A stretch of DNA of 64,000 bases. Source: Vibrio taketomensis. GTDB lineage: Bacteria > Pseudomonadota > Gammaproteobacteria > Enterobacterales > Vibrionaceae. Each line of letters starts with the position of its first letter. The first letter of the stretch is position 1. Positions 6,687-55,995 of this stretch are shown piece by piece. The translations under genes were made by a program, and so were the position numbers. The notes under the pieces were generated by a model. It ran no database searches and had not been told where the DNA came from. It saw only the letters and a list, made by a program, of their open reading frames with translations. Where the stretch lies: positions 1,240,001 to 1,304,000 of the forward strand of contig NZ_AP019649.1 of the NCBI RefSeq assembly GCF_009938165.1, read 5' to 3'.

Positions 6687-6895
6687 ATGTTAACTAAATT
6701 ATTTATCAATACTCAACTCGCGGTCGAGAAATTTAGAAACGACCAACGTGGTGTAACCGCCATTGAATACGCAATTATTGGTGTTGCTGTATCTGCATTA
6801 GTACTAGCTGTTTTGCATCCGATACTACTGGGTTAAAGAAAGCGCTAACGGATGCTATGGGTTTTATTTCAGATAATATCACGGCCGCAAAGTAA
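6687..6895 (+). CDS. flp: Flp-type prepilin (frame-shifted)
   Basis: The major subunit of the Flp/Tad type IVb pilus. Frame one gives 49 residues with the prepilin cleavage region RGVTAIEYAII (glycine before the cut, glutamate at +5) and the start of the hydrophobic helix, then stops at 6836. If one T is restored in the T-run at 6811-6814, the frame continues as AVFASDTTGLKKALTDAMG... to a stop at 6893-6895, giving a normal ~69-residue Flp. It is the first gene of the operon. The shift is either a base-calling loss or a real off-state; normal Flp sequence beyond it favours error or very recent change. Confidence 0.85.
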
Positions 6896-7340
6896 TGCAG
6901 TACATATAGATGTTAAGCAAAGCTTTTATGTAGGATGGCTATTGTTAGCCATCCTATCTTCAGTGATATATGCAGATATATTGACGAGAACAATATCAAA
7001 TAAATTATGCCTTTCAATACTTTGTGTCAGTTTGCTGATTGGTTTTTCACAGTTCGCTTTATTAAATATTGTTATTGGATGTTTAGTGCTACTCGCTCTA
7101 TATGGATTTTCGATATGGGGTGGGGGAGACAGTAAGTTAGCAATCGCATTTTTGCCTGCAATATCAGAGCAATATCTTTGGTGGTATTTATTGTTCATTG
7201 CTTTTTTAGGCGGAGTGCTTGCGCTGATTTATTTAATATACGGATGTTTTGTTGGAATAGAAAGAGTCAAGCAGAATGGATTACCCTATGGCATGCCTAT
7301 TTGTTTATCCGGCTTATTTTTTATTGCAGCATCAATATAA
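6895..7340 (+). CDS. cpaA: Prepilin peptidase CpaA/TadV
   Basis: A24-type aspartic peptidase that processes Flp prepilin at the membrane. The coding frame (ending TAA at 7338-7340) shows several membrane helices and the two catalytic aspartates in the expected places: one in IYADILTRTISN near the start and one in the GGGDSKL motif (GxGD). The start is not settled: the open frame extends back into flp to an ATG at 6852, while the gene probably begins near 6895-6935; no good start codon and ribosome site are visible there, so a small sequence error is possible. Confidence 0.8.
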
Positions 7341-7349
7341 GGAAAGAAC

Positions 7350-8143
7350 ATGCGTTCAAAAATTATTATGGCCGTGGCCATTGTTGCGATCGTAGCGGGT
7401 CTCTTTGGTCTGTTTTTTCCCAAACAAAACGCTCAGCCTGTCGTTGCTGAATCACAAGAGCTTGCTCCCGTTTTCTTCAAAGCCTATGTGTTATCCCCTG
7501 AGGGGGTTAAGCAAGGAGATCAAGTTAAGCGAAGTGACTTCAAAATCATAAAAATGGCAGAGGAAGAGGCTAATGCCTTGGGTTATGACGCTGATATGTT
7601 ATTTGATTTCGAAGCGGGTTCTGTATACGCCAACAATATTGAGCAAGGAGAGCATGTATTCATCGAGAACCTTGTTCAGCCATCTCAAGCGAAGTATATC
7701 GATTTTATTATCAAACCTGACCATGTGCCGTTTGCGATTGAAGTATCCCCTAGCTCCATTGTTGGTGGCGTAATTAGTTCAGGCAGTTATATCGATATTC
7801 TGGCTTTAACTGGTCAAGATAGCGCGAGTAACGAACTTGGTAATTATGGACGAGAGCAAGTCTCAATCAATCCAGTACTTACACACATCAAAGTCTTAAA
7901 AGTTGAGCAGCCTAAAACTGAGTTGGCACTAAACAGCGAGCAGATTGAACCCAGTTACTTAATTTTGGAATTGAATCGAAAACAAGTCGCTGTGCTGACG
8001 GTTGCTAAGACAATTTCAAAATACATAAAACAATTGGTCATTACCCAATTCATCAATTGCAAGCAGACGCAGGTGATGTACTGCCTGATTTTAAAACCAT
8101 CAAAGAACTAAGAGCAGAAAAATTGCTGTTAATTAATAGCTAA
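7350..8143 (+). CDS. cpaB: CpaB/RcpC pilus assembly protein (frame-shifted near C-terminus)
   Basis: N-terminal membrane anchor (MAVAIVAIVAGLFGLFF), then a SAF-like domain typical of CpaB/RcpC with the linker GEHVFIENLV. The frame breaks at an A-run at 8027-8030; adding one A carries on as TIGHYPIHQLQ...LLLINS to a stop at 8141-8143, giving ~264 residues. Known role of the family: periplasmic partner of the Tad secretin. Ribosome site AAGGAA precedes the ATG. Confidence 0.85.
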
Positions 8144-8155
8144 GGAAGAGCCGTT

Positions 8156-9487
8156 ATGTCCAGTTTTAAAATCACTCTAGGCGTTTTGTTGGCAACGAGT
8201 TTATTTTCCATCATCGCTCACGCATCAGGTTTCATCTATTTAATGGAAGGCGAAGCGAAACCTGTCGTGACGACAACCGATATCGATACGGTATTTATTT
8301 CCGATCCGGAAGTCGCGGATTATCAGGTAATCGATACCAAAAAAATTGTCGTGTTCGGGAAAAAAATGGGCACCACATCGTTGATGTTGTTTGACGAAAA
8401 TGCGCAGACACTAGTCAATCGCAAACTTGTTATTAATCAGAGTTTTGCCGAGATTAGTCAACAAGTTCGCTTACATTTTCCAACCTCTGATGTATCGATA
8501 AGTAATATCGGTGAACAAGTTGTTCTGACTGGTGTTGTTGCTACTGAAGATGAAAAAGATGGCATTAATGATTTAGTCGGTGAATTACTGTCTAAAGACG
8601 TTGAAAAGACGATCCATACTTGGGAAAAAGATGACGGTGATGACGAAATCATTGGCTTTATGACTAAGCGAGAATACAAGGGAATCGTCAACCAAATCGA
8701 AGTAAACACAACCAAGCAAGTAAACGTAAAGCTATCGATTGCTGAGGTATCACAAAGCTTTATGGAAAATTTTGGTGTGCAATATGGTGATGCGGGCCAA
8801 ACGGCTGGCGTCTTTGTGAATCCGATATTAGATTTCAGCGCCGATGATCTACTTGCGACTATTACTGCGGTTGGGGATGACTCAATCGGCCAGGTTCTCG
8901 CTGAACCGAATTTATCCGTTATTTCAGGTGAAAGTGCCTCATTCTTAGTTGGTGGCGAAATCCCCGTGGTGACCATCGTCGATAATGCGACGAATGTGGA
9001 ATACAAAGAGTTCGGTATTCGCTTAGACATGGTTGCTAAAGTGCTTCGTGACGACAAAATTAAACTCTCTCTACAACCTGAAGTGAGCTCTCTCGATACT
9101 CAATATACCGATGAGCGCTACAGTTTACCGGCTCTCAAAACTCGCAGAGCGAAGACCACCATTGAGCTAGGAAATGGGCAAAGTTTTGTCCTAGGTGGCT
9201 TACTGAGCACTGAGGATGTCGAGAGCTTGAGAAAGGTGCCTTATATTGGGGATATTCCTATTCTCGGGTCGCTATTTCGTAACACCGAAACATCCCGTAA
9301 TAAAACCGAACTCGTCATTGTTGCGACCGTCAACTTAGTTCAGCCAATCGCGCCGCATCAGGTTCAATTGCCATCGATGAAACGCACCTCAAACTTATCG
9401 CGACTCTTTTCGATCGATGAAGAGTATTCCCCGGTAGTGACACAACGCGCGCAAGACATTTTGGCAACTGGAGGATTTAAAAAATGA
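8156..9487 (+). CDS. rcpA: Secretin RcpA/CpaC
   Basis: 443 residues with a signal peptide. An N-terminal pilus-assembly domain (VTTTDIDTVFISDPEVADYQ region) is followed by a BON-like segment (QQVRLHFPTSDVSISN) and a C-terminal secretin domain with the hallmark VPYIGDIPILGSLFRN and a GGEIPV strand. It should form the outer-membrane pore of the Flp pilus. Frame intact. It overlaps the next start by four bases (ATGA), implying translational coupling. Confidence 0.92.
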   Translation: MSSFKITLGVLLATSLFSIIAHASGFIYLMEGEAKPVVTTTDIDTVFISDPEVADYQVIDTKKIVVFGKKMGTTSLMLFDENAQTLVNRKLVINQSFAEISQQVRLHFPTSDVSISNIGEQVVLTGVVATEDEKDGINDLVGELLSKDVEKTIHTWEKDDGDDEIIGFMTKREYKGIVNQIEVNTTKQVNVKLSIAEVSQSFMENFGVQYGDAGQTAGVFVNPILDFSADDLLATITAVGDDSIGQVLAEPNLSVISGESASFLVGGEIPVVTIVDNATNVEYKEFGIRLDMVAKVLRDDKIKLSLQPEVSSLDTQYTDERYSLPALKTRRAKTTIELGNGQSFVLGGLLSTEDVESLRKVPYIGDIPILGSLFRNTETSRNKTELVIVATVNLVQPIAPHQVQLPSMKRTSNLSRLFSIDEEYSPVVTQRAQDILATGGFKK

Positions 9488-10002
9488 TTCGATGGACTAT
9501 ATCTCTCGTTGTGGTGGTGTTACTCAATGCATGTACTGTAGTGCCGGAAAACAAGAGTATTGGGGTGGATGTTTATCCTGTTGAACACCAATACTCGATG
9601 ATGTTTGATAGCAAAGGAATGGGTCAAGCCAATCTCGAATGGCAAGAATTGAAACAATCGGCTCGTCATAGTTTGCTCTCACAGCCAGTGACTTTCCTCT
9701 ACGCCAACACGGCAGGAAAAATGGCTGCAAAACGTTGGAGTAATGAGCTTCTCAAACAAGGGGCAAAAGATGCGTTAATCAAAGTCGTTTATAGCGAGCA
9801 GCTTGAAGGCTTTGATGTGCAGATTCAATTTGTTCATTACAGAGTCGTCACGCCACTTTGTCAGCCGAAAAACATCAGTGAGTATGCCTTTGAACAATTG
9901 GGATGTTCGGTGAATAGTAACCTCTGGCAATCAATGGTTGAGCCACAGGCATCGTTGATGAAACCCGCAGCTCCTCCCGCTAAAACTGGCGACGTTTTAT
10001 AG
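9484..10002 (+). CDS. Tad-locus outer-membrane lipoprotein (RcpB/CpaD-like position)
   Basis: 172 residues starting with a lipoprotein signal (lipobox LNAC, cysteine at residue 17). The rest is a small periplasmic domain with a repeated hydrophobic pattern (FLYANTAGKMAAKRW..., DVQIQFVHYRV) resembling CpaD/RcpB-like secretin helpers. Its overlap with the secretin gene supports a role as pilotin or accessory protein. The family assignment rests mainly on position. Confidence 0.7.
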   Translation: MIRWTISLVVVVLLNACTVVPENKSIGVDVYPVEHQYSMMFDSKGMGQANLEWQELKQSARHSLLSQPVTFLYANTAGKMAAKRWSNELLKQGAKDALIKVVYSEQLEGFDVQIQFVHYRVVTPLCQPKNISEYAFEQLGCSVNSNLWQSMVEPQASLMKPAAPPAKTGDVL

Positions 10003-10022
10003 CCTAATCAAGGAAGTGACTT

Positions 10023-11249
10023 ATGTTAGATATATTAGAGTCCCTAAATAAAGTCGAAAAAAAGGCTAAAGAAACACTTACTTTTAATTGCGTTGCATTT
10101 ACTCAAAGTGAGAAATGTCGGGTTTTAATTGAGGAAGCATTTCGCTTTGATGGTTTAGTACCTCCAGTTAGCCTGCCTAATACAGACGCAGATATTCAAG
10201 CGCATGTTCGCCAGAGCGAAATTGAAATCGTATTGGTCGAGCTTAATGATTCTAAAAATGTCACAAAAGATATGCAGCGTATCAGTCATTTACTACCCAA
10301 CCACGCCTCAGTCATTGTCGTGGGGCAAGAGGATGCGATATCGACCATTCGTAATCTGAAAGCGATGGGTTTCTACTATCTTTTCTGGCCAGTGACGAAA
10401 CAAGAGCTACTGGACTTCGTCAAAAACGTATTTGATAACCGAGTACGCTCGAGCGGTTTAGGTAAAAAACGATACGCCAAAAATATCGCAGTTTGGGGGT
10501 GTTCTGGCGGAGTCGGTACGACACTACTTTGTAGCGAGATTGGTTACGGCTTAGCTAAGCAATATCATGCGAAGTGTTTAATCGTTGATCATGACTATTA
10601 CGCAGGAAATATCGATATTCTGCTTAAGTTAGATAACTTTGAGAAAAAGCCAGCCACCATTGCCAGTGTTGATCACGATCTCGATGGCATATACGCCACG
10701 AGTTTAACCAGAAAAGTAAATGATATGCTTTCTGTGTTGTCATTAACATCCGAAACCCATGATGCCCACGAGCTGAAAGAGTACATCAGAACATTAGAAG
10801 CTCTGTTATATGAGCACAATAACTTTGTGATTTCTGATCTCTCCAAGGGTGGGCAGAATAATGCGGATTACCAATATTTGACCGATAAAGTGGATACCAC
10901 CGTGCTGGTGTTCAATTCATCTGTGTCGGGCGTTAGACAGCTTAAAAAAATGCTGCAACATATTGCCTCACACAACCCAAGTTCTCGTCAGATCATTGTG
11001 CTCAACCATATTCGTCCAGCCAAAGCATCATTGCTTACAGCGGTAGAAATAGAGAAGTTTATTGGGCGGTCGATCGATATTGAGATCCCATATGAACAAG
11101 ACATCTTAAAGCACGTTTTGGATGGTGGGTATTTGTATCAGTCCAAACTTTCCGTAGCAGCATCGATTGAAAAGCTGATCAGCATGATTATGGGAGAGAG
11201 TATCGCGCCTAAGAAAAAAACGTTCACCCAATGGCTATTAAGAAAATGA
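10023..11249 (+). CDS. tadZ: TadZ/CpaE pilus localisation ATPase-like protein
   Basis: 408 residues: an N-terminal receiver-like domain (about 1-140) and a ParA/MinD-like domain starting with the deviant Walker A GCSGGVGTTLL (about residue 160). TadZ proteins place the pilus machine at the cell pole. Ribosome site AAGGAAG lies before the ATG. Frame intact. Confidence 0.9.
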   Translation: MLDILESLNKVEKKAKETLTFNCVAFTQSEKCRVLIEEAFRFDGLVPPVSLPNTDADIQAHVRQSEIEIVLVELNDSKNVTKDMQRISHLLPNHASVIVVGQEDAISTIRNLKAMGFYYLFWPVTKQELLDFVKNVFDNRVRSSGLGKKRYAKNIAVWGCSGGVGTTLLCSEIGYGLAKQYHAKCLIVDHDYYAGNIDILLKLDNFEKKPATIASVDHDLDGIYATSLTRKVNDMLSVLSLTSETHDAHELKEYIRTLEALLYEHNNFVISDLSKGGQNNADYQYLTDKVDTTVLVFNSSVSGVRQLKKMLQHIASHNPSSRQIIVLNHIRPAKASLLTAVEIEKFIGRSIDIEIPYEQDILKHVLDGGYLYQSKLSVAASIEKLISMIMGESIAPKKKTFTQWLLRK

Positions 11250-11259
11250 TGGGTAGGGG

Positions 11260-12552
11260 ATGAATATGAATCAAACACAATCTCGCAGTACCTTTATCTC
11301 ATTGCGAAAACAAATATACGATGCACTTGAAGCCGACATCGTGAACAAACTGACGCGTGAACAGCTGACCGATCAGATCTCAACCGCAATAGACGTATTG
11401 ATCGAGCGAAATGAATACTCTGTGGCGACGGTGGTAAGACGTGAATATGTAAAAAACATTATTGATGAACTGTTGGGATTAGGGCCGCTTCAACCGTTGA
11501 TGGATGATGAAAGCATTACTGACATTATGATTAACGGCCATCATAACGTCTACATCGAGCGTAATGGTTTGGTTGAGCGCTCAATGGCCTCTTTTATTGA
11601 TGAGCAGCAGTTATTGCAGATAGCCAAAAGGATTGCGGCGCGAATTGGTCGACGAGTAGATGACTCTTCACCGACGTGTGATGCTCGCTTGGAAGACGGT
11701 AGCCGGGTAAATATCGTGATCCCGCCAATTTCAATCGATGGAACAGCGATTTCCATTCGTAAGTTTAAAAAGCAGAGTATCGATCTCGAGCAGCTTGTGG
11801 GATTTGGCGCGCTAAGTCCTGAGATGGCAAAAATATTAATGATTGCTTCACGCTGTCGCCTCAACATTTTGATCTCTGGCGGTACGGGTTCTGGTAAGAC
11901 AACGCTATTAAACGCTTTATCTCAATTTATCTCGGAGAAAGAACGCATTGTGACCATTGAAGATGCGGCAGAACTCCGATTGCTACAACCCCACGTTGTA
12001 CGCCTAGAGACCAGAACATCAGGTATAGAAGGTACAGGTGCGATTACCCAGCGTGAGTTAGTGATTAACTCGTTACGTATGCGACCTGACCGAATTATTG
12101 TGGGCGAGTGCCGTGGTGGCGAAGCGTTTGAGATGCTGCAGGCAATGAATACGGGTCACGATGGCTCGATGTCGACTCTTCACGCCAATACGCCTCGAGA
12201 TGCGTTGGCTAGGGTTGAAGCTATGGTGATGATGGCGAACAACAATTTACCGCTAGAGGCGATTCGTCGAACAATTGTTAGCGCCATTGACCTTGTAGTC
12301 CAGGTGAGCCGTTTGCATGATGGTTCGCGCAAGATTATGAGCATTTCAGAAGTCGTTGGTCTTGAAGGATCCAACGTTGTAATGGAAGAAATTTTCCGTT
12401 TTGAGCCATCAGTAAGTAATGATGGCGAAGGCAAAGTCAATGGTGAGTACGTTTCTGCAGGTTTGATGAAACGTTCAGTATTGGTTGAAAAAGCTCGCTT
12501 CTTTGGCTTAGAAGGCAATTTGAACTCAGTGTTTGGTTTTGCAAGGGGATAA
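11260..12552 (+). CDS. tadA: TadA/CpaF secretion ATPase
   Basis: 430 residues of the type II/IV secretion ATPase family. Walker A GGTGSGKTTL is near residue 207; the Asp box and His box appear as VTIEDAAELRL and GSMSTLHANTP; Walker B region RPDRIIVGECRG. The enzyme drives Flp pilus polymerisation from the cytoplasmic face. Frame intact. Confidence 0.95.
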   Translation: MNMNQTQSRSTFISLRKQIYDALEADIVNKLTREQLTDQISTAIDVLIERNEYSVATVVRREYVKNIIDELLGLGPLQPLMDDESITDIMINGHHNVYIERNGLVERSMASFIDEQQLLQIAKRIAARIGRRVDDSSPTCDARLEDGSRVNIVIPPISIDGTAISIRKFKKQSIDLEQLVGFGALSPEMAKILMIASRCRLNILISGGTGSGKTTLLNALSQFISEKERIVTIEDAAELRLLQPHVVRLETRTSGIEGTGAITQRELVINSLRMRPDRIIVGECRGGEAFEMLQAMNTGHDGSMSTLHANTPRDALARVEAMVMMANNNLPLEAIRRTIVSAIDLVVQVSRLHDGSRKIMSISEVVGLEGSNVVMEEIFRFEPSVSNDGEGKVNGEYVSAGLMKRSVLVEKARFFGLEGNLNSVFGFARG

Positions 12553-12554
12553 TC

Positions 12555-13473
12555 ATGGCTTGGTTGAGCTTGCTTCTAGGCGGAATACTACTGATTTTTA
12601 TAGCGAGATCTGAAGATAAGAAGAGTGCTGGCCGTTTTTGAATCGACAAAAAAAAGCACAAGTGGTGACGTCGATGGAGCAGGGGAACGCCGTCAACCTA
12701 AACTCACTTAGTGATGAATCCCTATTACAAATCATTACGCGAACATTCTTAAACACCCGCAGACAGCTAGGCTCTGGCGCTTTGCTCAAACTGATTGTCG
12801 TGATGGGTTTGCTTGGCTTGCTATCAATCTATATCAATAAAATTTTGTTCGCGGAAACTCATGGGCAGTCTTGGCCGTCGTTGAATTGATGGGGCTCTAT
12901 TTTGGTTATCAGTGGCTGCAAAAAAGAGAAAAATCCGCTTTTGATACGGAATTTCCCGATGCATTGAATATGCTGACTAGTGCGGTCAGCTCTGGGGAAA
13001 GCTTGATGCATGCGATTTTGTATGTCGGCAGAACACTTGACGGTGAAGTGGGGAAAGAATTTAAGTTGATGGGTGAGCGCTTGCAAATGGGCGAGTCGCC
13101 AGACTCGGTTTTCAGAAAGTCGTGTAAACGATTTCCATATCCTGCGTTTCACTTCTTTGTCATTACGATGCGCGCCAACATGCAACGTGGCGGTCAGTTA
13201 AAAGAAGTCATGACTAGGCTTAATCGATTGATGTTCGATGCTCGCGCTGTAGAGAAGAAAAAGTATGCACTAACGTCAGAGGCGAGAACATCTGCAAAAA
13301 TCGTTGCAGCGATTCCACTTATATTTTTGTTTATGTTGCAGTTTTTAAGTCCTGAAAACTATGAGTTTGTCATGTTTAATCCGAACGGGCGCGCAATTCT
13401 GTATTACGTCCTCGCCAGTGAATTTATTGGTATAGCGATTGTTTGGAAGCTAATGAAAGGGGTAGAAGCATGA
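12555..13473 (+). CDS. tadB: TadB inner-membrane platform protein (two frameshifts)
   Basis: Begins ATG GCT TGG just after tadA and encodes an N-terminal membrane helix, a linker, two more helices and a T2SSF (GspF) domain (DALNMLTSAVSSGESLMHA, PYPAFHFFVITMRANMQRGGQL). The gene is broken at the T-run 12635-12639 and at GGG 12863-12865; restoring one base at each joins three frames into ~306 residues, the normal TadB size. It forms the inner-membrane platform with TadC. Confidence 0.85.
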
Positions 13474-14342
13474 GTATTTTATCCTATGCAAATATTGCGC
13501 TGTGTTTGATTGGCATTGGTTTGCTGGCGTTGGTGCTTTCGCTTCGTCAGCAGAGAAAACAGCAGACGATAAACAAATATTTAGCAGAAGAAAAGTCGAG
13601 TAAGTCTCAGTCTCTCAGTGACTGGCTTGAAGTGATCGTGCCAAAATCTCTATCTGTAAACGAGCAAGAAATCCAACAAAAACTTCATGATGCCGGTAAC
13701 TATTCGTTTAAGTATGCACACTTATATTTACCATTTAAATATGCATTACTCGTGTTTGGTTCGGTAACGATTGGCTTTATTTTTTATGGTTCTTTGTCAT
13801 CGACAGTATTGCTCGCAACCATCGCACTTTGGGTTATCGCGATACTCTTAGTTCCAGATATGATTTTGCAGGCACGTATTAAGGCTTATCAAAATACCAT
13901 TAATCGACAACTCCCTTACCTAATTGATTTACTTGCTGTTTGTGTTCAAACAGGGATGACCATTGAATCTTCGCTAAGTTATTTAGCGAATGAGATGCAG
14001 GGTTTTGACGCTAAATTGGCACAACTGCTTCAGAAAACAAATGAGCGAGCAAACATTGTTGGTTTGGATAAAGCATTAGATGAAGCGCATCTTCATATTC
14101 CGACGCCTGAAATGCGCAGTTTTGTTATGACTCTTAAACAGAGTCTTCGATATGGGTCTTCTATTTATTCAACCCTTACAACACTCTCCGCTGATATTCG
14201 CCAAGTTTCTATGTTAACCACGGAAGAAAAAATAGGGAAACTCGCGGCCAAAATGTCAGTACCACTAATTCTATTTATCATGATGCCGATTGTTATTTTA
14301 ATTGCGGCACCTGGTGTTATGAGGATGCTTTCTGGTGCGTAA
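13470..14342 (+). CDS. tadC: TadC inner-membrane platform protein
   Basis: 290 residues from the ATG at 13470, which overlaps the tadB stop (ATGA). A T2SSF domain is visible (QLPYLIDLLAVCVQTGMTIE; SLRYGSSIYSTLTTL) with flanking membrane helices. Partner of TadB. Frame intact; the open frame extends a few codons further upstream, but the overlapping ATG is the likely start. Confidence 0.9.
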   Translation: MSILSYANIALCLIGIGLLALVLSLRQQRKQQTINKYLAEEKSSKSQSLSDWLEVIVPKSLSVNEQEIQQKLHDAGNYSFKYAHLYLPFKYALLVFGSVTIGFIFYGSLSSTVLLATIALWVIAILLVPDMILQARIKAYQNTINRQLPYLIDLLAVCVQTGMTIESSLSYLANEMQGFDAKLAQLLQKTNERANIVGLDKALDEAHLHIPTPEMRSFVMTLKQSLRYGSSIYSTLTTLSADIRQVSMLTTEEKIGKLAAKMSVPLILFIMMPIVILIAAPGVMRMLSGA

Positions 14343-15170
14343 ATTCATTAATTCAATGTCTAGCGCTTTGGTGCTAGCAACGATGCTCCAAGGATGTGTG
14401 TCACCAAGCAATGGCAACGTGGATCGTTCGGACCAACTCAATCTAGAGACTCAAGAGCGAGTATTGTTGGCATCGAATAATACAGTGGGGTTGATTGAGT
14501 TTTACCAGAATCAACTTAAAGACGCAGAATCTGAGCACTATAGAATCAAACTTGCTGAAGTTTATTTGAAAAAACATGATCCCGAATCGGCGTTATTCGT
14601 TTTGACCCCTTTGACAGGTAAATCACCAAGCAGTGCAGAGAGTACGCTGGTTGCGGCTAAAGCTCACATGGATTTAGGTCAATTCGAGGTTGCGCTAGGT
14701 ATGTTGGAAAATGCCTATGAACAATCCCCGTTAATGGTGAGGTCGCGAATTTATTGGGTGTTGTTTATGCAGAAACAGGTCAATTTAAACAAGCCAGAAC
14801 AATGTTTGACGTGGCGAGAACTCATTTTTATAGCGACCTAAAAATTAAAAATAATTTGGCTTTGCTAGACATACTGGAAGGCAATTATGCCGCTGCATTA
14901 GAGCGCATATCTTCGGTAGCGACTGAACCATCATTAGATAAACAAACTCGAGCTAACTTGTTATTAGTAATGGCAAAAAATGGCCAACGACAACTGGTCA
15001 TGCAAGAGCTTGATGACTCGCTTACAGAAAATCAAAAAATGAGCATTTATCTGGCATTAAAAAATTCGGATTTAAAAACCAGTCGCGGCCAAATGCCAGC
15101 AAGTAACAGCGTAGCGGATACAGGGCAATCGACGATTTTGCCCAATGTGACTCACGAGTTGCACCAATAA
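14335..15170 (+). CDS. tadD: TadD TPR lipoprotein (one frameshift)
   Basis: GTG start overlapping the tadC stop. Lipoprotein signal with lipobox LQGC, then tetratricopeptide-like helices (AEVYLKKHDPESALFVL; AKAHMDLGQFEVALGML). The first frame ends at 14841; the second frame resumes at about 14745 with LLGVVYAETGQFKQARTMF and runs to 15170, so one base is missing around 14735-14750. Reconstructed length is ~278 residues. TadD proteins are needed for pilus assembly, probably as periplasmic scaffolds. Confidence 0.85.
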
Positions 15171-15180
15171 GGAGCTGTTT

Positions 15181-15690
15181 ATGAAAAGGGGCAGAAAACA
15201 AACGGGTGCGGTAGCAATCGAATTTGTAATGGGATTTATGCTGTTTTGGTGGCTATGTATGGCATGGGTGGAAACCAGTTATATGTCTTACATATCGGCG
15301 GTATCAGACCTAGCTGTCAGTGAAGCTTCGCGCGAAACACGACTCGATAATTCAATTGGCGAAGGCGAAACCTATGCGCAGCGTTTTCAGCAAGCACTGA
15401 AAAGCAGTGATTCACTGTGGGCTAAGTTTGTTGATCCAGCAAAAATGAGATTCACAATTCAATATTTAAATTCGCCAAGTGAATTAGAGCTACTCGCTGA
15501 CAACTATTGTGCGCTTGCTGAAGGAGCGACGACCAATGAGTGTGGCGAGTCTCACCATAGTGCGATCGCCGTATATCGCATTAATTATGATTACGAACCA
15601 ATGTTTAATTATTTCCTAAATTCGAGTCAGTTGTTCTCTCGAGAAGTCATTATGATACAGGAATATGAACGTGATGAATTCATCTATTAG
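15181..15690 (+). CDS. tadE: TadE-like pseudopilin
   Basis: 169 residues. N-terminal GAVAIEFVMGFMLFWWLCM has the G/x4-E prepilin-like cleavage pattern and hydrophobic helix of TadE. Minor pseudopilin of the Tad system, processed by the CpaA peptidase. Preceded by ribosome site AAGGAG and overlapping the next gene. Confidence 0.88.
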   Translation: MKRGRKQTGAVAIEFVMGFMLFWWLCMAWVETSYMSYISAVSDLAVSEASRETRLDNSIGEGETYAQRFQQALKSSDSLWAKFVDPAKMRFTIQYLNSPSELELLADNYCALAEGATTNECGESHHSAIAVYRINYDYEPMFNYFLNSSQLFSREVIMIQEYERDEFIY

Positions 15691-16234
15691 CTATAAACGT
15701 AGAGCAAAACAGAAAGGCACTTTTACGATTGAATTCGCTATTGTTGGGCTATTTCTTAGTCTTCTTTTTGTATTTGCCGGAGATATGACGATCAAATTGG
15801 CTCACAAAGGCAAGTTAGATCGGCTGTCATATTCGTTAGTCAATATTCTAAAAGAAAGAACTCAGCTTTATGGTAAAGACTTTAATATTAAACCAGCCGA
15901 AATTGAATCAATCGCCAATATTGCACGCGATTCATTACGGCGAACCGTTCAGCAGTTCGACCAAGCAAGTTTTGGTTATTTGATTGAATCCGTCACTTTC
16001 GATCAAGAACAAAAACCAAGCTATCAATTTTTTAACACAAACGGGGTTGGAGTGAGATGCCAAGCAGCACAATCGCTAAATCAAATGCAGCATCTCTCCA
16101 AAGTGACAACGTGGGGTCGTAGAGCAACACTGTATCGTGTCACACTCTGTTATGAAACCGATAATTGGATTGGTGATTTGCTAGATGTTGATTTTACTAC
16201 GGTTCAGTCTGACGCAGTGATGATTGGGAGGTAA
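15665..16234 (+). CDS. tadF: TadF-like pseudopilin
   Basis: 189 residues, overlapping tadE by 26 bases. KGTFTIEFAIVGLFLSLLFVFAGD gives the same prepilin-like N-terminal pattern as TadE. Assigned to TadF by position and by the TadE-like head with a longer soluble part (KLDRLSYSLVNILKERTQ). Frame intact. Confidence 0.85.
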   Translation: MNVMNSSISYKRRAKQKGTFTIEFAIVGLFLSLLFVFAGDMTIKLAHKGKLDRLSYSLVNILKERTQLYGKDFNIKPAEIESIANIARDSLRRTVQQFDQASFGYLIESVTFDQEQKPSYQFFNTNGVGVRCQAAQSLNQMQHLSKVTTWGRRATLYRVTLCYETDNWIGDLLDVDFTTVQSDAVMIGR

Positions 16235-16236
16235 TT

Positions 16237-17564: not shown

Positions 17565-17575
17565 GGAACGTCATT

Positions 17576-18201: not shown

Positions 18202-18229
18202 CGACCTACGACAATGATACTGCATATTC

Positions 18230-18264
18230 AAAGCCTGCTTAGTTTATTTACAGAGCAGGCTTTT
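18230..18264. terminator. Bidirectional terminator between Tad operon and regulator
   Basis: Stem AAAGCCTGCT / AGCAGGCTTT with T-rich flanks on both strands, placed between the convergent ends of the Tad operon and the regulator gene. Confidence 0.9.
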
Positions 18265-18281
18265 CCATTTTTGAAGACTTC

Positions 18282-41462: not shown

Positions 41463-41463
41463 T

Positions 41464-42620: not shown

Positions 42621-42631
42621 ATATTGAAAAG

Positions 42632-44830: not shown

Positions 44831-44841
44831 AGTGTTTCTCC

Positions 44842-45261: not shown

Positions 45262-45263
45262 GG

Positions 45264-47014
45264 TTAACCTCTTACAAACGCTTTGATTGTGGCAATTTCT
45301 TTCCTTCGCTCTCGCCATATGGTTGATGATATACGCGTCTACGTGAGCTGGGATAACGAAGGTTTCAGCATAATGAACAACAAATGGCTCAAATTTATTG
45401 TCGGGACTCAAGATAATTGCCTCTTTACCTTCTACTAAGTTCAGAACATTGACGGTTCCCCAGTTTTATGAAGAACAGGTTTGTTGAACCAGTGGCGGCG
45501 CGTTTCGATAAATTCGCGTTCATGAAGACCCGTTTTTCTTCTCCAACCGTCGCCTTCAGCTATGAGGGTAATTGTGTTTACTAAATGCTCTTGACACCAT
45601 TGTGTGTCGCGATCCCATTGAATAACTTCTTTGCCGTGTTCCAAGTGTACCGGTCGTGGCAGTCCATCAAGCCCTAGGCGATCCCAATCCCAAAGCTTGA
45701 ATGTGAAGATATATGGAGTTGCACTGATTTCAAGCACCATAGAGTCGGAACCTGAGCAATGAATAGTGCCTGCTGGGATTAAGAAATGATCATGCTTTTC
45801 GCCGAGAATTGATTGACAAAAGTTCATCATCGAACGATTTTTCACCGCGCTGAGCTGCATACAAGTCATCCATCATTTCATCTGGGTTAATACCAGACTT
45901 AGTGCCAAGATAAACGCATGCTTTATCCCCAGCGTCTAGCATGTAGTAGCTCTCGTCTTGGGTATAATGCATACCAAATTCGTTTTGAATATATTCGGTT
46001 AGAGGATGTACTTGCAGGCTCAGGTGCTGACCTTGCATTGTATCGAGGAAGTCGAATCGAATTGGGAACTCCGCCCCAAAACGTGCATGGACATTGTCGC
46101 CTAATAAAGCTTGTGGTTGGTTAATACCAAGTCTTGCGATGGGATTTCGACAACAACGTCACCGTATTTAAGGAGAAGGCTGTTCTTCAGGAACACAGTC
46201 AAAACACCATGCGTAGTTAGGTTTGTCTTGATCGAGATCACAGACTTCTTTCATCCATTGCCCCCAAACCCCAGGGTCAAAGAAAGGTACAAGTCTAAAT
46301 GGCTGAGTTGTGACTTGTTGTAAACCGGCATTAAACGCAACACCAGTGACCATTTTAGGGTCAAAAGCGGTGTTAGTATCTAAGATAAAATCAACGTCAG
46401 CTAACAGCTTGGTCTTATAGCGGTCGAAGACACGCCATTCGATAAAGAATGAACGCTTGTATTTACGCAGGACATCTTCGTTGTAGTTGTTAGCACCCCA
46501 GTTGCCAAGCTCGCCACTGCGGAAGCGTTGCTGAATTTCCCAACGAGCTAAATCAGCGTAAATAAAGGTATCACCATCGGCGACTAATCAGCACCATGAC
46601 CAATAACAACGATGAAACCTGAATTAGCGTCGCTAATTTTTGTTTAAATCCTTGTAGTTTTCGCTGTCAAAGAACTCTTCCAGTTTGTGTGGAGCAAGAA
46701 CTCCAAACACTCGGTCATCGGTAATGTTGCGCTCTAGCATGGCAAAGATGTGTTCTTCGGAATGTTTCTGCATCATCCATTGAGATCACTAGGTCTGGTG
46801 ATAGCGGTGCTACAAGCTGGTCGAGGAGTTCGTTGTGATTAACACCATGATAGGTATCGACTACCAAAATATGTTTATCTTGGCCCTGAATACGTTGCTT
46901 AATTGTGTTAACTATATGGTTCCAACCGCGAAAAGCATCATGATCAAAGCCTTTCACTGTTACATTCGGAAATTTGTCATAATGGATTGACCAGATAGGA
47001 ATTTCATAAATCAC
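45264..47014 (-). CDS. Class I mannose-6-phosphate isomerase with long N-terminal extra domain (frameshifts)
   Basis: About 580 residues over several shifts, much longer than a plain class I ManA (~390). The C-terminal half has the zinc-site region GQHLSLQVHPLTEYIQNEFG (about residue 330) and later DHFLIPAGTIHCSGSDS, so it should convert mannose-6-P to fructose-6-P. The N-terminal ~250 residues (VTVKGFDHDAFRGWNHI, HILVVDTYHGVNHNELLDQL, DDRVFGVLAPHKLEEFF) look like a P-loop kinase-like fold, but I see no clear Walker A. Start uncertain: a GTG at 47014 heads the frame. First gene of a minus-strand PTS operon. Confidence 0.75.
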
Positions 47015-47068
47015 CTTGAGTTAATCAGTTGTCTACAGTCTAATCACTCAATTAATCAATCGACAAAT

Positions 47069-47187
47069 TGGTTAACGTGTTTAACCACTCGTTTAGCAGT
47101 TATTAACCAATGATTTTATGGTTAATTTTGTGGTTAATCACATAATCATGACTGAAAAAGTCTTTAAATAGGTTAATCGTTTAACCT
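47069..47187. promoter_or_regulatory. LacI-type operator cluster in the divergent promoter region
   Basis: Inverted repeats TGGTTAA-CGTGT-TTAACCA (47069-47087), TTAACCA-N9-TGGTTAA (47103-47125) and AGGTTAA-TCGT-TTAACCT (47170-47187) share the half-site GGTTAA. They lie between the PTS operon and the divergent lacI-type gene, where the regulator would control both. Confidence 0.65.
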
Positions 47188-47248
47188 GATTTTAATCAGA
47201 TAATAAAGGCGCTATAACTAATACTAAATTTATTTACTGGAGCTCAAC

Positions 47249-48243
47249 ATGGCCAAAGCAACCATCGCAGAAGTAGCTAAGCATTGCGGCGTGTCTACCG
47301 CGACAGTGTCCATGGTATTGACGAATAAGGGACGAATTTCAGCGACCACGCGAGAGCGGGTTCTGAAGCCGTAAATGAGCTTGGTTATGTTTACAATCAA
47401 GCTGCGGCTAACTTATGACATAAGCGTAGTAACTTAGTTGGGCTTGTTACCCTGATATTACTAACCCGTTTTTCTCTGAAATGATCGCAGGGCTTAGCCA
47501 TTATCTTGAAGAGCAAGATTCGTTGCTCTTTCTTGCAAATGCAGAGGAGAGCGTAGAGCGTCAAAGTAAGTTTATTGATTCTTTATTGAGTCAAAACGCT
47601 GGTGGCGTAGTTATGTGCCCTGCAATGGAAACTAATTTAGACTTTTAGAGACAGTACAACGTCGTGGATTTCCGATAGTATTGGCTGTACGGCCTATTGG
47701 TGAAGATCAGTTTGATTTTGTAGGAACGAATAACTTTATGGGCTTACAGTTAGCGACGGAGCATCTTATAAAAAAGGTCATAAACACATCGCATTTGTGG
47801 GTGGTTTAGAGATTTCAAAACGCGTTCTCATCGTCCGGTGGCTATATGTCAAAGTTGATGGAACACGGGATTTTATTTAATGAGCGATACATTCGAAGTT
47901 GCTCTGCGAGTCGATCTGAGGGCGCAAAAGTGACAAGGGATTTGTTGGAGCAGCACCCTGAAATTACCGCTATTATTGGCTATCAAGATATTGTTGCTTT
48001 TGGCGTAATGAGAGCAATTAAAGATCTTGGTAAAACAGTGGGTAAAGATATAGCGGTTGTTGGTTTCGATGACGTAGGGAGTCTGCGGACACAAATCCAC
48101 CACTGACTACCATTTCTGTTTCTGCGAGAGAAATAGGTCGAGCTGCAGGAGAGATTATTTTGTCTCGTATGGAGGGTGATAACCAACCATATAAGAGTGT
48201 GGTGTTCCCACCCAAACTAGTGGTGAGACGCTCGTGTGGTTGA
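47249..48243 (+). CDS. LacI-family repressor of the PTS operon (frameshifts)
   Basis: ATG at 47249. The head KATIAEVAKHCGVSTATVSM is the LacI helix-turn-helix, with the hinge (ISATTRERVLKAVNELGYVYN) and the ligand-binding domain (LVGLVTPDITNPFFSEMIAG, GGVVMCPAMETNLDFL, GKDIAVVGFDDVG). Stop at 48241-48243; ~332 residues across about six shifts. Divergent to the PTS operon, which it probably controls through the GGTTAA palindromes. Confidence 0.82.
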
Positions 48244-48450: not shown

Positions 48451-49215
48451 TCATTTGGCAGGGTTCACTCGTTCGATTAACTGTCTTAGACACATTACTT
48501 TCGTCTTTTTCACCAACGCAGCCTGATTACGAACGTCGTCGATAATACATATGCCACCACCACATTTATGCTTAAATTCTGACGAGTAACAGCGAACTTC
48601 TATATCGATAAAGCGGTCTTGCAGTATTGGCTTCAAAGTCAAAATGGAACTAGCGTGATCGTAATGTATAAAGCAGTAGTCGTTTATCAAAAGGTTCATG
48701 CTCACCAACATCAACTCAGCGGCTGTAGCTGGAATCAATACGATAGAATTATCAAAAATTGGCATATGGCTTAAGTGAAAACCCTCCTCAATTTCAACCA
48801 TTAACGTTGACTTAAGGTGTTTTGGGTTTGAACTAGGTGAGAACATCGCCCGAATCTCAGCAAAGTATTGTTGATAGATGAAGTAGGGCACAGCGATGTC
48901 TGAGCCAATCTCAACATTACGGTCTTTGAGATAATCAGCAAAGGAATAGTCATGAACGCCCAAAAGAGTTTTGAAGTGTTCTAGCCCCCCTAAGACTCGC
49001 TGGATTTGCTTGATACCAATCCCGTGTTCAATTAGATCATGTTCTTTTAGATAAGGCTCTGATCTTAACAATGTCGTTGCGGTGAGTATCAAACCGATGT
49101 CTACGGGAGATAACCCAAAGGCGAAGAAGCGTGACATATCGATTGAGGTTGAATTTGACGTGGCGTCTTCAATTTCTTGAATAATGTTGAGGCGTAAACT
49201 GTCATTCATATACAT
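48451..49215 (-). CDS. Unknown protein next to the integrase
   Basis: 255 residues from the ATG at 49215 (MYMNDSLRLNIIQEIEDA), preceded by a GGAG ribosome site; the open frame continues upstream to 49296 but this start is better. The sequence is soluble and partly helical (LSPVDIGLILTATTLLRSEP, HGIGIKQIQRVLGGLEHFKT). No family recognised. Frame intact, unlike most nearby genes. On the same strand as, and 82 bp after, the integrase. Confidence 0.6.
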   Translation of the reverse strand: MYMNDSLRLNIIQEIEDATSNSTSIDMSRFFAFGLSPVDIGLILTATTLLRSEPYLKEHDLIEHGIGIKQIQRVLGGLEHFKTLLGVHDYSFADYLKDRNVEIGSDIAVPYFIYQQYFAEIRAMFSPSSNPKHLKSTLMVEIEEGFHLSHMPIFDNSIVLIPATAAELMLVSMNLLINDYCFIHYDHASSILTLKPILQDRFIDIEVRCYSSEFKHKCGGGICIIDDVRNQAALVKKTKVMCLRQLIERVNPAK

Positions 49216-49296
49216 AGTATATCTCCTATATAGATATATCTTTTTGGTGAAGTAGGCTGGTGGATAGCTATGAAAATCATCAGCTATTAAGCTCAA

Positions 49297-50628
49297 TTAA
49301 TTTGGTTTATGTTGACCCGCTATGGAGTAGTGATGGCCTGTAGCATCGACAATGAACTGACTCCAAAATGTTAATATTTCAACTCGTTGCTCGAGATATT
49401 TGGCACTGTTGTAAGCTGCGCGGGTCTGGTTTTTGTCTAAGTGTGCTAAGCACATTTCAATAGCATCGGAATTAAATCCTTTCTCGTTAAAAAGCGTACT
49501 TGCGATGCCGCGAAACCCATGGCTAACGAGTCGACCTTTTAGGGATGTATTTCCAAGAGCAGAATTCACTGCCGATGGGCTGATGTGTGGATATTTTGTG
49601 TTAGGCTTATCCGAAGGAAATACGAATTTCTGATGACCTGAAATAGGGCGAATGAACTCTAGAATTGAAACGGTATAGTCGGTAAGTGGCACCAGATGTT
49701 CTCGTTTACTTTTGGTGAAGAATGCAGGGATAGTCCAAAGACGTTTTTCTAAATCAATGTCGCACCAGCGCATTGCTGCTAATTCGTCCGCACGAGAAAT
49801 GGTGTGAAGTTGCATTTCAAATGCACAACGAGTAACTAACTTCATCTGCGTGTTAGACATCGTTTCCATGACATGGCTTAGCTCCATTGGCGCTACCGAT
49901 GGCATATGTGACGGTATTGCTTTAGCGAACACTTCGCGGATGTCAGCAAGGCAATTGCTATGAATGAAACCGCAGTTAATCGCGAACTTCATAACTTGAT
50001 TCGCAAGGGTGCAAGCACGTTTTACATTCTCGAGATTTCCCCTTCTTTGCATAGGACGAATAGCCTCAATGACTTGTAAAGCAGTGATATCTGAAATTGC
50101 AACATCGGCCAAATATGGATATAGGTTGCGTTTGAAAAATAGACGCTTACGATAAGATGTTCTGACCTTGTGGGTAATACGTTCAATATCTTGCTTGTCA
50201 AAAACGGTGCCATTGATACGTGCAATTTTTTGCTCTTCTTCAATGAGCTTTTGGCGCTTGGTGGATTCATTGACTTCTTGGGTTGCCAACATCTCTTCTG
50301 CTACGCTTTTGAACGTTCGATAGTATTGCTGTGCTCGTTCGGTGTTAAGTTGGTCTCGAATTAGGCGAGGATCTTTGCCATTTACTAGGTGTTTGCGGTA
50401 TTCATCGGCTAACTTACGAGCTTGCGCCAGTGTCAGTTGAGGATAAGCGCCTAGTCCAAGCTTTATACGTTTTTTTGTGATAGGGTGGGTATAGATAAAG
50501 AGCCAATTTTTACTGCCATTAGGTCTTATCCTGATGTACAAATTGCCCCCATCTGAAAGCGTGTATTCTTTGTCTGTTGGTTTGGTGTTCTTTATAGTCT
50601 GATTAGACAATAATTCTATTCCAGCCAT
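49297..50628 (-). CDS. int: P4-type tyrosine integrase
   Basis: 443 residues, intact. N-terminal DUF4102 arm-binding domain (KEYTLSDGGNLYIRIRPNG, RIKLGLGAYPQLTLAQAR) and a C-terminal tyrosine recombinase domain with the arginine in SRADELAAMRW, the HGFRGIAST box (H-x-x-R) and a late tyrosine (AAYNSAKYLEQR). This class integrates prophages, satellites and genomic islands, often at tRNA genes, but no tRNA is found here; an attC site starts 184 bp upstream of the gene. Confidence 0.9.
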   Translation of the reverse strand: MAGIELLSNQTIKNTKPTDKEYTLSDGGNLYIRIRPNGSKNWLFIYTHPITKKRIKLGLGAYPQLTLAQARKLADEYRKHLVNGKDPRLIRDQLNTERAQQYYRTFKSVAEEMLATQEVNESTKRQKLIEEEQKIARINGTVFDKQDIERITHKVRTSYRKRLFFKRNLYPYLADVAISDITALQVIEAIRPMQRRGNLENVKRACTLANQVMKFAINCGFIHSNCLADIREVFAKAIPSHMPSVAPMELSHVMETMSNTQMKLVTRCAFEMQLHTISRADELAAMRWCDIDLEKRLWTIPAFFTKSKREHLVPLTDYTVSILEFIRPISGHQKFVFPSDKPNTKYPHISPSAVNSALGNTSLKGRLVSHGFRGIASTLFNEKGFNSDAIEMCLAHLDKNQTRAAYNSAKYLEQRVEILTFWSQFIVDATGHHYSIAGQHKPN

Positions 50629-52401: not shown

Positions 52402-53169
52402 TGGACAAAGTTGTTTGGAAATCACCGAATGATGAGGCAATGGTGACAGATTACACCTGTCCGGCATGCAACAAGGGATTGCTTAAGCTATTTAAAGAAG
52501 ATTTGGTCTTAAGAGAGTATGTCCGTTCAAAAGCAAATCACAAGCATGAAGATATGCAAAGTGACTGGGTAGAGTCGTCTGTTCGGAGTTCTTCAGTGTA
52601 ACCATGATTATTGCCTTGAGTATGTGTCTTTTGTGGTGAAGCTCGTGGGATGATATTGAATATATTAGTGATGAAGTACCTGGTGGTTGGGGTTTAGAGT
52701 ATATAGACAAAATCGAAATAAAATACATATATCCTTCACCCAATTTGATTCCATTAAGCTAAGTATCCAGAGTCCATTATCCAACTGTTAAAGGATTCAT
52801 TCTGTTTATATTGGTCTAGCCCAGCATCTTGCGCTAATAAAATGCGAATTATCGTTGAGGAGGTTCTTAATGACCAAAAGTTCCTTTGAGGCATAAGGTA
52901 ACAAAAGGCAACGGAACAATAAAATTCTGTAAAAGTAATACACACCAAAGAATATTGAGATTGGGAAAGAAAAAGGGTTTAGTGAAAGTGCCGAGTATCT
53001 TTAGCAATCAAAGAGATTGGTAATTCAGCAAGTCATGTTTGAATTCAATGATAAAGCAATAATTCCTGCTTATAAGCTTTTAGATAAAGCGCTGAATATG
53101 ATTTACATTGGTTACGATAAAGAGCTTGAGATGCTCAAAGATTTAGCAAAGAGTAAAAAGCTAGCCTAA
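52402..53169 (+). CDS. DUF4145-like cassette protein (frameshifts)
   Basis: TTG start at 52402 (DKVVWKSPNDEAMVTDYTCP). CPACNKGLLKL and later CNHDYCLEYVSF give paired cysteines of a zinc ribbon, then PESIIQLLKDSFCLYWSSP, CANKMRIIVEEVLND and EYLLAIKEIGNSASH... with EFNDKAIIPAYKLLDKALN. This is the DUF4145 pattern (zinc ribbon plus HEPN-like helices). ~255 residues with about five shifts. The stop (TAA 53167-53169) overlaps the start of attC site 3, as in typical cassettes. Confidence 0.7.
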
Positions 53170-53273
53170 CAAACTGTTTAAGACTGATTCGCAACGCGTG
53201 GCATTTTTACTATGCGTTGGTTTTAGTGTTTAAGGTGGTATGCGGCAGCTTCGGTATTGCGTTGCTCACATAT

Positions 53274-54599
53274 ATGGTCTCCCCCTGTTTTGCAAGTCAG
53301 CAGTATGATTAAAAGAGCAGGTTAACTACCATATATACGGCCTGTTTTTGCGGCTATTGCCTTGGCCAAGATGAGGCAGTCGAACACGAAGTCCTAATCA
53401 CCTTATCGACTTTAAAAGCCAGCGTGAGCACAAGGTTTTCAACGTGTAGGATTTATCCTGTTATTCATCTCACTACGTACTTTGCAAAGGGTTGGTGGTG
53501 TATGGTGCTTTATGCCGGTTGATATTCTTCGTTTTTGGTTATAACAGCCCAAGCGATCCGCATGAGTTTGTTTGCGAGAGCGACCGCAGCACGGTTGGAG
53601 CCTCGTCGTTCTTGTAACTCAAGCATCCATTTACTGAGTTTGTCGGACTTGAACTTGGCTCGTCTTAAAGCTGCTCTAGCACCATGAACCAGTAAAGATC
53701 GAATCTAAGTATTACCTCGCTTGGTAATGCCGAGAAGAATGACATTACCACCTGTTGTGTCTTGTTTTGGAACGAGTCCTATCGCCGCAGAAGCATCTCA
53801 CCCCGTTCTAAATTGCTGTCCAGAGCCGAGCCATACGGCGACGGCTTGGCTAGTGAGTGGTCCAAAGCCAGGAATGGACATCAGTCGTTTGGCATTATCA
53901 AATTGCTTAACGGTTTGGTTGAGTTTCTCTTCAAACCATTGGATCTGTTCCTCGATGTATAAATAGCGTTCGTATTGACGTGATAGAAGTTCACGCAATG
54001 TTGGCGATAGTTGGTTTTCACTTTCTTCCAGTATTTCGGGAATGGCTTGCCTAAAAGACGCTTTTCCTTTTGGGATAACGATGCCGTACTCAGCAATTAA
54101 TCCTCGAACTTGATTAATCAAACGGGTTCTTTCGGTAACACATAGTCTGCGCATTCGAATCAATGATTGAATGTCTTGTTGCTCGATGGATTTGTGTGGA
54201 ACGGGGTGGGTGCGTTGATAGAGTGTAAGTTCAGTAATCGCTTCTGCATCGTTATAGTCATTCTTCTGCTTGCGGCGCTGATTTTTGACATGTTGAGGAG
54301 GGTATAGCAGAACATCATGCCCAAAATTTTCGAACTCACGTGCCCAGTAATGAGCACCTGAACACGCTTCCATTGCGATGATACATGGAGTTTGAGTTGC
54401 GACGTAGTTCAGTAGTTTGGTTCGTTGAAGTTTTTACGCCCAATGTTCTTCCTTTATGATTGATTTCAAAAAGAAAGAAAATATTTTTGCTAAGTCGATG
54501 CCGATGATTTTATGCTGAGTCATGGTCTTCTCCTTTTGCTTTAGGACCTAAACACTCCAAGCATGGCTGATGGTCATGTGAAGTGGTAGGGGAGACCAT
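53274..54599 (-). mobile_element. IS110-family (IS1111-type) insertion in attC
   Basis: About 1.33 kb bounded by the inverted repeat ATGGTCTCCCC (53274-53284) / GGGGAGACCAT (54589-54599). Inverted repeats separate the IS1111 subgroup from other IS110 elements. It carries one transposase gene and interrupts an attC site; a subgroup of IS1111 elements is known to target attC. Confidence 0.75.
53510..54523 (-). CDS. IS110-family DEDD transposase (frameshifts)
   Basis: Start MTQHKIIGIDLAK at 54523. IIGIDLAK, AMEACSGAHYWAREF and KNDYNDAEAI supply the DEDD residues of the RuvC-like N-terminal domain; MSIPGFGPLTSQAVAVWLG and SAAIGLVPKQDTTGG (after a shift) form the C-terminal Transposase_20 domain. 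About 338 residues; three or four shifts. Stop at 53510-53512. Confidence 0.82.
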
Positions 54600-54643
54600 C
54601 TCATCACCTTAACAGGGCGTTAGCATTATAAAGGAAGAACAGT

Positions 54644-55220
54644 GACAATTATCGAAGTCAAAACTTAGCATCAGCTTTTCAATCAATTGCATTAGTGCTC
54701 GCTATTTGTATTGGTGGTGGTTGGGCTTTATTCCAATTCTTTCGGTTAGAACGATTGAAAAAGCAAAAGCGGAGTTGAGAAAACTTCAATTGGAAACTAG
54801 ATCCTACGGCATTTTACAAATATCTGTTACCCCAAGAGCAATCTCTTCGTATCCTGGAACTGTGATAGTTGATATTCACATGAAAATATCGGCACGAACG
54901 CCGAAACCATCGATCTAGAAAAGTCTAAGGTTACGTTAGGACCTGTAGGAACAGGCAACTTTAATGCTCTCTCGGTTAAGGCAACAGTTAACGTAATGCA
55001 TCAGGGAGTTGATAATGTTGGTTTTTACGATTCTTCACCCTGGAGAAGAGCAAATAATTAAGTATATTGCTACGGGCTTAAGCCATTCTACTTATTTGGT
55101 GCAAGCGTCGTTTGTTGGCTCTCCTAGTGAAACTGAGTATCAGAGCAACATTGCTAAACAAAGTGGACTGACTAGTTCTCAGGTTATATGGGGTGTACTG
55201 AGTACATTGAAATATAATGC
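54644..55220 (+). CDS. Unknown cassette membrane protein (frameshifts)
   Basis: Begins near GTG 54644 (VTIIEVK) just after attC site 3. Rebuilt frames: a membrane helix (FQSIALVLAICIGGGWALFQ), a charged helix (RLERLKKAKAELRKLQLETR) and a beta-rich part (YGILQISVTPRAISSYPGTV, ETIDLEKSKVTLGPVGTGNF). About 185 residues; start and stop are not certain. No family recognised. Confidence 0.5.
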
Positions 55221-55346
55221 TAACAAGCAATTTAAGAGGGATTCACAACGCTTGGCACTTTTGCTTCTACTTCAGTTTTAGTGTTTATGGCACAATGCTT
55301 TAGGTTTGGGTGGGGGCGTTGTTCACCCCTTAATTGGGAGTTAGGC
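55221..55346 (+). repeat. attC site 4
   Basis: TAACAAGCAATTTAAGAGGGA...TTCACCCCTTAATTGGGAGTTAGGC; complete site, with an A in place of C in the GGGCGTTAG box. Confidence 0.82.
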
Positions 55347-55359
55347 AATAGGGAAAGTT

Positions 55360-55995
55360 ATGAGTGTGGATGTAGACAAAATACTAGATCTGCTGATAGT
55401 TAGCGAAAAGAACAGTAGTGGTATCGGGCGCTATATTTGTGAAACGCGTATTGAAAAGATAACACTAAGTCTCGCCATTTTATGTATTTATCAGCGCCAT
55501 TCCAATAGCTCTTGGAAAAAGAATTAGCTTTGTATATTTTGGCTGGTGCTATTGTTCTTGCTGTTATCTATATGCTGGCATCTATTGTGCCGTTGTTGAC
55601 CTCTTTTTAGTTTTAAACGAGATGCGTTAATTAGTGTCAAAATGAGCATAATTCAAATATAGATTTTGTTGCTCAATTAGCCAACTACGACCTAGACTCA
55701 TTGAATGAAGTAAAGCAGCTTTAGAGCGGCGTGTTATCTTTCTAGTTGACCGCATTGGGTTTATGGTAGGTGCTGTAGATAAATTAGGACTATTTCCTGC
55801 TTTATTTATGCTCTATTTTACTTACACAAAAATTTCTGATAATTCGGTAAGTGTGTTCCAATGGTGGCAATCGCATTCATATGCGGATTGTATATTGGTG
55901 TTCTACTCGCTAAAGCTGTCATCGATTCGTTCCGCGATAAAATACAACTACTAGAATTAGCCATGGCAGATAAATCTAAGTTGAAATTGCCCTAA
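55360..55995 (+). CDS. Unknown cassette membrane protein (frameshifts)
   Basis: ATG 55360 (MSVDVDKILDLLIVSEKNSS). Rebuilt frames: an early membrane segment, ALYILAGAIVLAVIYMLAS, then SNIDFVAQLANYDLDSLNEV, a further pair of membrane helices (LGLFPALFMLYFTYTKI; ICGLYIGVLLAKAVIDSF) and the end LLELAMADKSKLKLP. About 210 residues with four to five shifts. After the stop only TAACACA remains of an attC 5' box, so the array ends here. Confidence 0.55.

What the first reader, a model, noticed from the sequence alone, without database searches (positions are those of the whole stretch)
6687..55995. Single-base frameshifts pile up in accessory genes but spare the flanking core genes
In flp (6811-6814), cpaB (8027-8030), tadB (12635-12639 and 12863-12865), tadG (16722-16725) and the OmpA gene (17986-17987), restoring exactly one base in a short homopolymer rebuilds a perfect family sequence. 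tadD behaves the same way, with the base lost near 14745. The same happens dozens of times up to 56 kb, while about 6 kb on the left and 8 kb on the right are clean. Some shifts are insertions (near 41400). Homolog-guided polishing of a homopolymer-poor read set would give this pattern, since accessory genes lack close references. Every broken gene should be read as possibly intact.
Basis: partly seen in the sequence, partly recalled or inferred. Interest (0 to 1): 0.7.

Follow-up and report, generated by a model that had tools for sequence, protein, structure and literature searches.

The report
Uncorrected sequencing deletions in variable genes
The many broken genes in this stretch of a Vibrio chromosome are almost certainly errors in the deposited sequence rather than real mutations, because the same kind of missing bases riddles all twelve copies of a ribosomal RNA gene that the cell cannot live without.

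Summary
The frameshift cluster is in the file, but it is an assembly artefact. In 40,968-48,054 the window has 56 private deletions and 1 insertion; four relatives have 0-6 and 0-1. In 35.5-40.7 kb it is 51 gaps to 1. Substitutions there still fall mainly on third codon positions, as in intact relatives. Decisive: all 12 copies of 23S rRNA in this assembly are 11-87 bases short; 9 of 9 copies in a control genome are 2890 nt. Shortening rises with homopolymer length (0.2% at 1, 22% at 4, 50% at 6); no scored run is longer. Other variable loci of the genome look broken too. Homolog-guided polishing fits but is not shown: pieces with 84-93% identical relatives stay broken, and rRNA, the most conserved DNA, is uncorrected. 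Corrections: core genes elsewhere break at a low rate (8 of 84); two island pockets keep long frames; no private insertion lies near 41.4 kb; tad homopolymers are not shortened, so the tad shifts are the least certain.

The parts
1..6600 (.). Left core flank: four long genes, all open (one without a family match, acyl-CoA synthetase, bax-like protein, NupC-family transporter)
   Evidence: Open frames, family matches for three, 0 frame changes in 4 genes
6687..18186 (+). Tad pilus locus, 14 genes, six of them with frame changes (flp, cpaB, tadB, tadD, tadG, OmpA-like); homopolymers mostly not shortened
18200..28100 (.). Left part of the variable stretch with few long frames
   Evidence: ORF coverage at 150 aa or more is 0.23 in 18.2-37.0 kb
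28118..30179 (-). Pocket with long open frames: a relaxase-domain protein (448 aa) and a 214-aa frame
   Evidence: Pfam Relaxase
35518..40748 (+). Broken relative of a 1704-aa Avs4-type protein that is intact in relative G050; 51 window-side gaps to 1
40968..48054 (.). Broken mannose/sorbose-type PTS genes with an epimerase-family gene and a 586-aa protein without a family match; 56 private deletions, 1 insertion; intact in G054
48451..50628 (-). Clean pocket: integrase-domain protein (443 aa) and a 281-aa frame
   Evidence: 0 window-side gaps in 49,295-50,933
53166..54622 (-). IS110-type transposase element, 93% identical to a copy in G084, with 5 window-side single-base gaps and 0 on the other side
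56378..61942 (.). Right core flank with long open genes, including a ZntB/CorA-type protein, a RhtB-type exporter and an amino acid carrier

Best explanation
The frameshifts are errors of the deposited consensus. A consensus that drops bases, chiefly in homopolymers, was corrected only where a correcting source matched. Core genes came down to about one break per 12 kb; the variable island and the rRNA operons kept near-raw quality. Shown here: the errors sit in functional rRNA, go almost only one way, grow with run length, and leave protein-level selection intact. Inferred: the read type (a long-read method of the nanopore kind) and the nature of the correcting source (related genomes, or short reads or contigs that lacked these regions).
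For: All 12 copies of 23S rRNA are 2803-2879 nt against 2890 in 9 of 9 copies of G100 and 2887-2892 in 11 of 11 of G138. Each copy has 10-42 deletion events and 0-2 insertions. Runs of 1 to 6 are shortened in 35 of 16533, 20 of 4723, 26 of 1265, 60 of 277, 29 of 71 and 12 of 24 cases, and no scored run is longer; G100 shows 0. In the island 56 deletions to 1 insertion and 51 to 1. Runs of six are shortened at every scorable site, 2, 3, 3 and 2 against the four relatives, overlapping places. Codon positions of substitutions are 117/67/564, like intact relatives. Low ORF coverage recurs: 7 of 39 full 20-kb samples under 0.70, against 0 of 20 in G138 and 0 of 20 in G100.
Against: Core genes are not fully clean (8 of 84), which correction only explains if incomplete. 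Deletions also occur at single bases, outside homopolymers (35 of 16533 in rRNA; 7 of 2076 in the island). Two rRNA copies carry long gaps (54 and 24 nt) and one has 235 substitutions against about 100, so not all error is homopolymer error. Three codons read stop in the aligned island genes against one in each relative. Low ORF coverage can be natural: one of the seven low samples holds rRNA operons, and three were not identified. No reads were available.
Confidence: 0.94

Rival explanations
1. Specific form 1, the first reader's: the correcting source was a set of closely related genomes (homolog-guided polishing), which can act only where such a genome aligns.
For: Tiles present in at least 4 of 6 relatives have mean ORF coverage 0.81 (17 tiles), other tiles 0.47 (43 tiles), p about 1e-4 (three stretches). 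The O-antigen-like stretch is nearly absent from six relatives and ends at an intact shared gene. The Homopolish authors state limits for rare species, non-coding DNA and mobile elements (section 10 of PMC8011154).
Against: Pieces with relatives 84-93% identical stay broken. rRNA is uncorrected. From about 8-10 errors per kb to 0.084 per kb is about 99% correction, more than the 70-95% in coding DNA that the paper reports. The tile test is confounded, because variable DNA has shorter genes anyway.
Confidence: 0.45
2. Specific form 2: the correcting source was short reads or short-read contigs, perhaps of another isolate or with gaps filled by raw long reads, so that repeats and stretches missing from that source stayed raw.
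For: rRNA, the classic gap of short-read data, is raw in all 12 copies; core is nearly perfect; clean pockets lie inside the island.
Against: The 40,968-48,054 stretch is not known to be repeated and has G+C up to 0.44, so own short reads should have corrected it; another isolate or missing coverage must be assumed. Tandem Repeats Finder found no arrays in the broken L111.
Confidence: 0.4
3. The breaks are real: an island and pilus locus decaying in this strain.
For: The breaks are concentrated in variable DNA, and the Tad locus has about seven of them in 14 genes while its homopolymers are not shortened.
Against: 23S rRNA is hit as well; selection on the proteins is intact; deletions outnumber insertions 56 to 1.
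Confidence: 0.04
4. A mutator strain or a programmed slippage of the expression machinery makes or tolerates the shifts.
For: Homopolymer indels are what repair loss gives (recalled).
Against: It would not remove 11-87 bases from every 23S copy with no scored run lengthened. mutS and mutL were not examined.
Confidence: 0.01

Closest known systems
Systematic homopolymer deletion errors of long-read bacterial assemblies (Homopolish paper PMC8011154, passages and section 10; Kastor paper PMC12007338, passages)
   Same: Deletions dominate, cluster at homopolymers, A/T runs included, and break reading frames; Kastor passages report deletion errors mostly after runs of four to five
   Different: Density here (8-10 per kb in the island) is high, and clean and raw parts alternate within one assembly
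Natural pseudogenes in a genomic island
   Same: Many broken genes in variable DNA beside an integrase and a relaxase
   Different: Substitution pattern of living genes, almost no insertions, and essential rRNA equally affected

Membership tests
Homopolymer under-call artefact | Shortening probability rises with run length and lengthening is rare | tested here: met
   23S rRNA, 12 copies; island. In tad it is not seen
Homopolymer under-call artefact | Hits DNA that cannot be broken in life | tested here: met
   12 of 12 copies of 23S rRNA
Homopolymer under-call artefact | Raw or accurate reads disagree with the consensus | not testable with these tools
   No reads are held
Homolog-guided polishing residue | Errors remain where close homologs are missing | tested here: inconclusive
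   Tile association is confounded; density does not follow best identity
Homolog-guided polishing residue | Highly conserved DNA is corrected | tested here: not met
   Core genes are corrected but rRNA is not
Natural pseudogene island | Relaxed selection: substitutions spread over codon positions, nonsense changes | tested here: not met
   117/67/564 by codon position, 3 stop codons in 1795
Natural pseudogene island | Breaks confined to dispensable DNA | tested here: not met
   rRNA affected; 8 of 84 core genes

The most novel reading that the evidence does not exclude
The Tad pilus locus alone carries real frame changes, so this strain is losing or switching off its pilus, hidden beside an island whose breaks are sequencing errors. 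In favour: tad homopolymers are intact, yet frame changes are about eight times as dense as in the core.
Probability: 0.13. Interest if true: 0.3.

Novelty: not a real feature. Interest (0 to 1): 0.15.

Why it matters
A genome scored 99.97% complete hides stretches with about one error per 100 bases, because such scores rest on core genes. Gene calls for its island, including a defence gene of the Avs4 type, would be wrong, and surveys of pseudogenes or gene loss would count them as real. The spread of 23S rRNA lengths within one genome is a check that needs no reads: 0 nt in G100, 5 nt in G138, 76 nt here.

Tried and rejected
Low G+C dropout of short reads: rejected as sole cause, since noisy 42-46 kb has G+C 0.436-0.439 while 62-64 kb has 0.403. 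Protein-guided correction alone: not favoured, because genes with close intact relatives stay broken and intergenic core shows no clear surplus of deletions (63 to 48 small gaps in 5.6 kb; coding 169 to 140 in 87.7 kb); not excluded. The run spectrum of the noisy part is depleted at length 6 (18 seen, 30.7 expected) but depends on composition, so pairwise tests are preferred. In L111 no run exceeds 5; a natural property of that gene was not excluded. tblastn counts in the island (23 frame changes in 26.6 kb together with tad) undercount, because dense shifts leave pieces too short to match. Paper searches were not built to name this genome and did not; its species is unknown, and the genus is inferred from named neighbours.

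Dropped rows: the clean pool leaves out 8 low or doubtful stretches and, the 3.9-kb end piece (31 of 40 kept). Run tables keep only runs whose flanks align. One search used three stretches.

Full report
What the window is. It is G000:C1:1240001-1304000 of a genome with two contigs of 2.96 and 1.34 Mb, completeness 99.97%. The genus, Vibrio, is inferred from named neighbours; the closest tad ATPase found belongs to Vibrio fluminensis (96% identity), whose tad DNA is 76% identical.

The tad locus. V. fluminensis proteins show frame changes in cpaB, tadB, tadD, tadG and the OmpA-like gene, a late start of the tadB match and an early end of the flp match: 6 of 14 genes. In the pairwise DNA alignment the window has 13 gaps, 11 of them not multiples of three, and V. 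fluminensis 3, one of them not a multiple of three, in 10.3 kb, intergenic parts included. But 22 of 23 scorable runs of five or more have equal length, so this block is not raw like the island. Two of 3357 aligned codons read stop, and most substitutions are at third positions in broken and intact genes alike, flp least so.

The island. In 40,968-48,054, aligned with four relatives, the window has 37 private deletions of one base, 13 of two, 5 of three and 1 of five, and one insertion. The relatives G054, G078, G090 and G075 have 0, 6, 1 and 0 deletions and 0, 0, 0 and 1 insertions. In 35.5-40.7 kb, against G050, there are 51 window-side gaps to 1. Runs of six are shortened at each scorable site (2, 3, 3 and 2 sites, overlapping), runs of five at 4 of 5, 5 of 7, 4 of 6 and 2 of 4; in the comparisons among relatives none of these lengths is shortened. 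Six genes carry 37 frame-breaking deletions and one insertion, yet substitutions by codon position are 117/67/564, as in intact relatives, for instance 155/62/708 in G075. Proteins under such selection until now are unlikely to have gathered dozens of real frame breaks.

The decisive control. All 12 copies of 23S rRNA in this genome are 2803-2879 nt. G100 has 9 of 9 at 2890 and G138 11 of 11 at 2887-2892. Each copy here has 10-42 deletion events and 0-2 insertions; G138 copies have 1-5 and 1-7; G100 copies 0 and 0. Shortening is 0.2, 0.4, 2, 22, 41 and 50% for runs of 1 to 6, and no scored run is longer. Two copies also hold gaps of 54 and 24 nt, and one has 235 substitutions against about 100 in the rest, so error of other kinds is present as well.

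Elsewhere in the genome. Of 39 full 20-kb samples, 7 have ORF coverage (150 aa or more) under 0.70, against 0 of 20 in G138 and 0 of 20 in G100. One of the seven holds rRNA operons, which are non-coding. L082 reads like an O-antigen or capsule locus (from its translations; no family search), is nearly absent from six relatives, and ends at an intact gene shared by all six. L088 has a broken variable stretch between intact genes. L111 reads like a giant RTX/adhesin-like gene (from translations; no tandem arrays found) without a run above 5. The other three were not identified. Sampled core genes are not perfect: 8 of 84 change frame (95.3 kb), against 0 of 53 in comparisons between G138 and G100; the 7 flank genes of the window show none.

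How it most likely arose. A consensus that drops bases was corrected only where a source matched. Error density does not follow the best relative found: 9.8 per kb at 86%, 7.9 at 80-85%, 3.4 at 93%, 0 at 84%, and 0 or 1 gap in 0.55 kb at 86-93%. A tool that needs near-identical genomes would show that; Homopolish by default takes genomes of at least 95% Mash identity and aligns with asm5 (passages). The roughly 99% correction of the core and the raw rRNA rather suit short-read data with gaps, or draft references that lack rRNA operons. I cannot decide between them.

What it contains. Relatives show the broken pieces as a mannose/sorbose-type PTS gene set with an epimerase-family gene and a 1704-aa Avs4-type protein (PADLOC, E 1e-173). 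Relaxase and integrase pockets keep long frames. An IS110-type element and a sequence repeated in many Vibrio genomes (the name attC/VCR is recalled) lie near the right end.

Verdict. Present in the file, not in the organism.

Noticed in passing
window 35518-40748: The broken frames here match a 1704-aa protein of a relative that hits the Avs4 antiphage model (E 1e-173); the assembly would report this defence gene as lost.
   Followed up: partly
window 55221-55343: A stretch about 123 bases long with up to 98% identity to many copies in other Vibrio genomes, probably an integron attC (VCR-like) site; the name is recalled.
   Followed up: no
window 62058-62164: Glycine riboswitch on the minus strand upstream of the amino acid carrier gene.
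   Followed up: no
L144 (G078), 1482-8878: Relative G078 has six private single-base deletions in the shared 7-kb stretch, so its assembly may have a milder form of the same error.
   Followed up: no
L111 (G000:C2:750001-770000): Giant RTX/adhesin-like gene in many frames; no homopolymer longer than 5 in 20 kb where about 13 runs of six are expected.
   Followed up: partly
G138, 23S rRNA copies (L157-L186): Copies differ in length (2887-2892) with shortened and lengthened runs of 5 and 6, perhaps residual errors in that genome as well.
   Followed up: no
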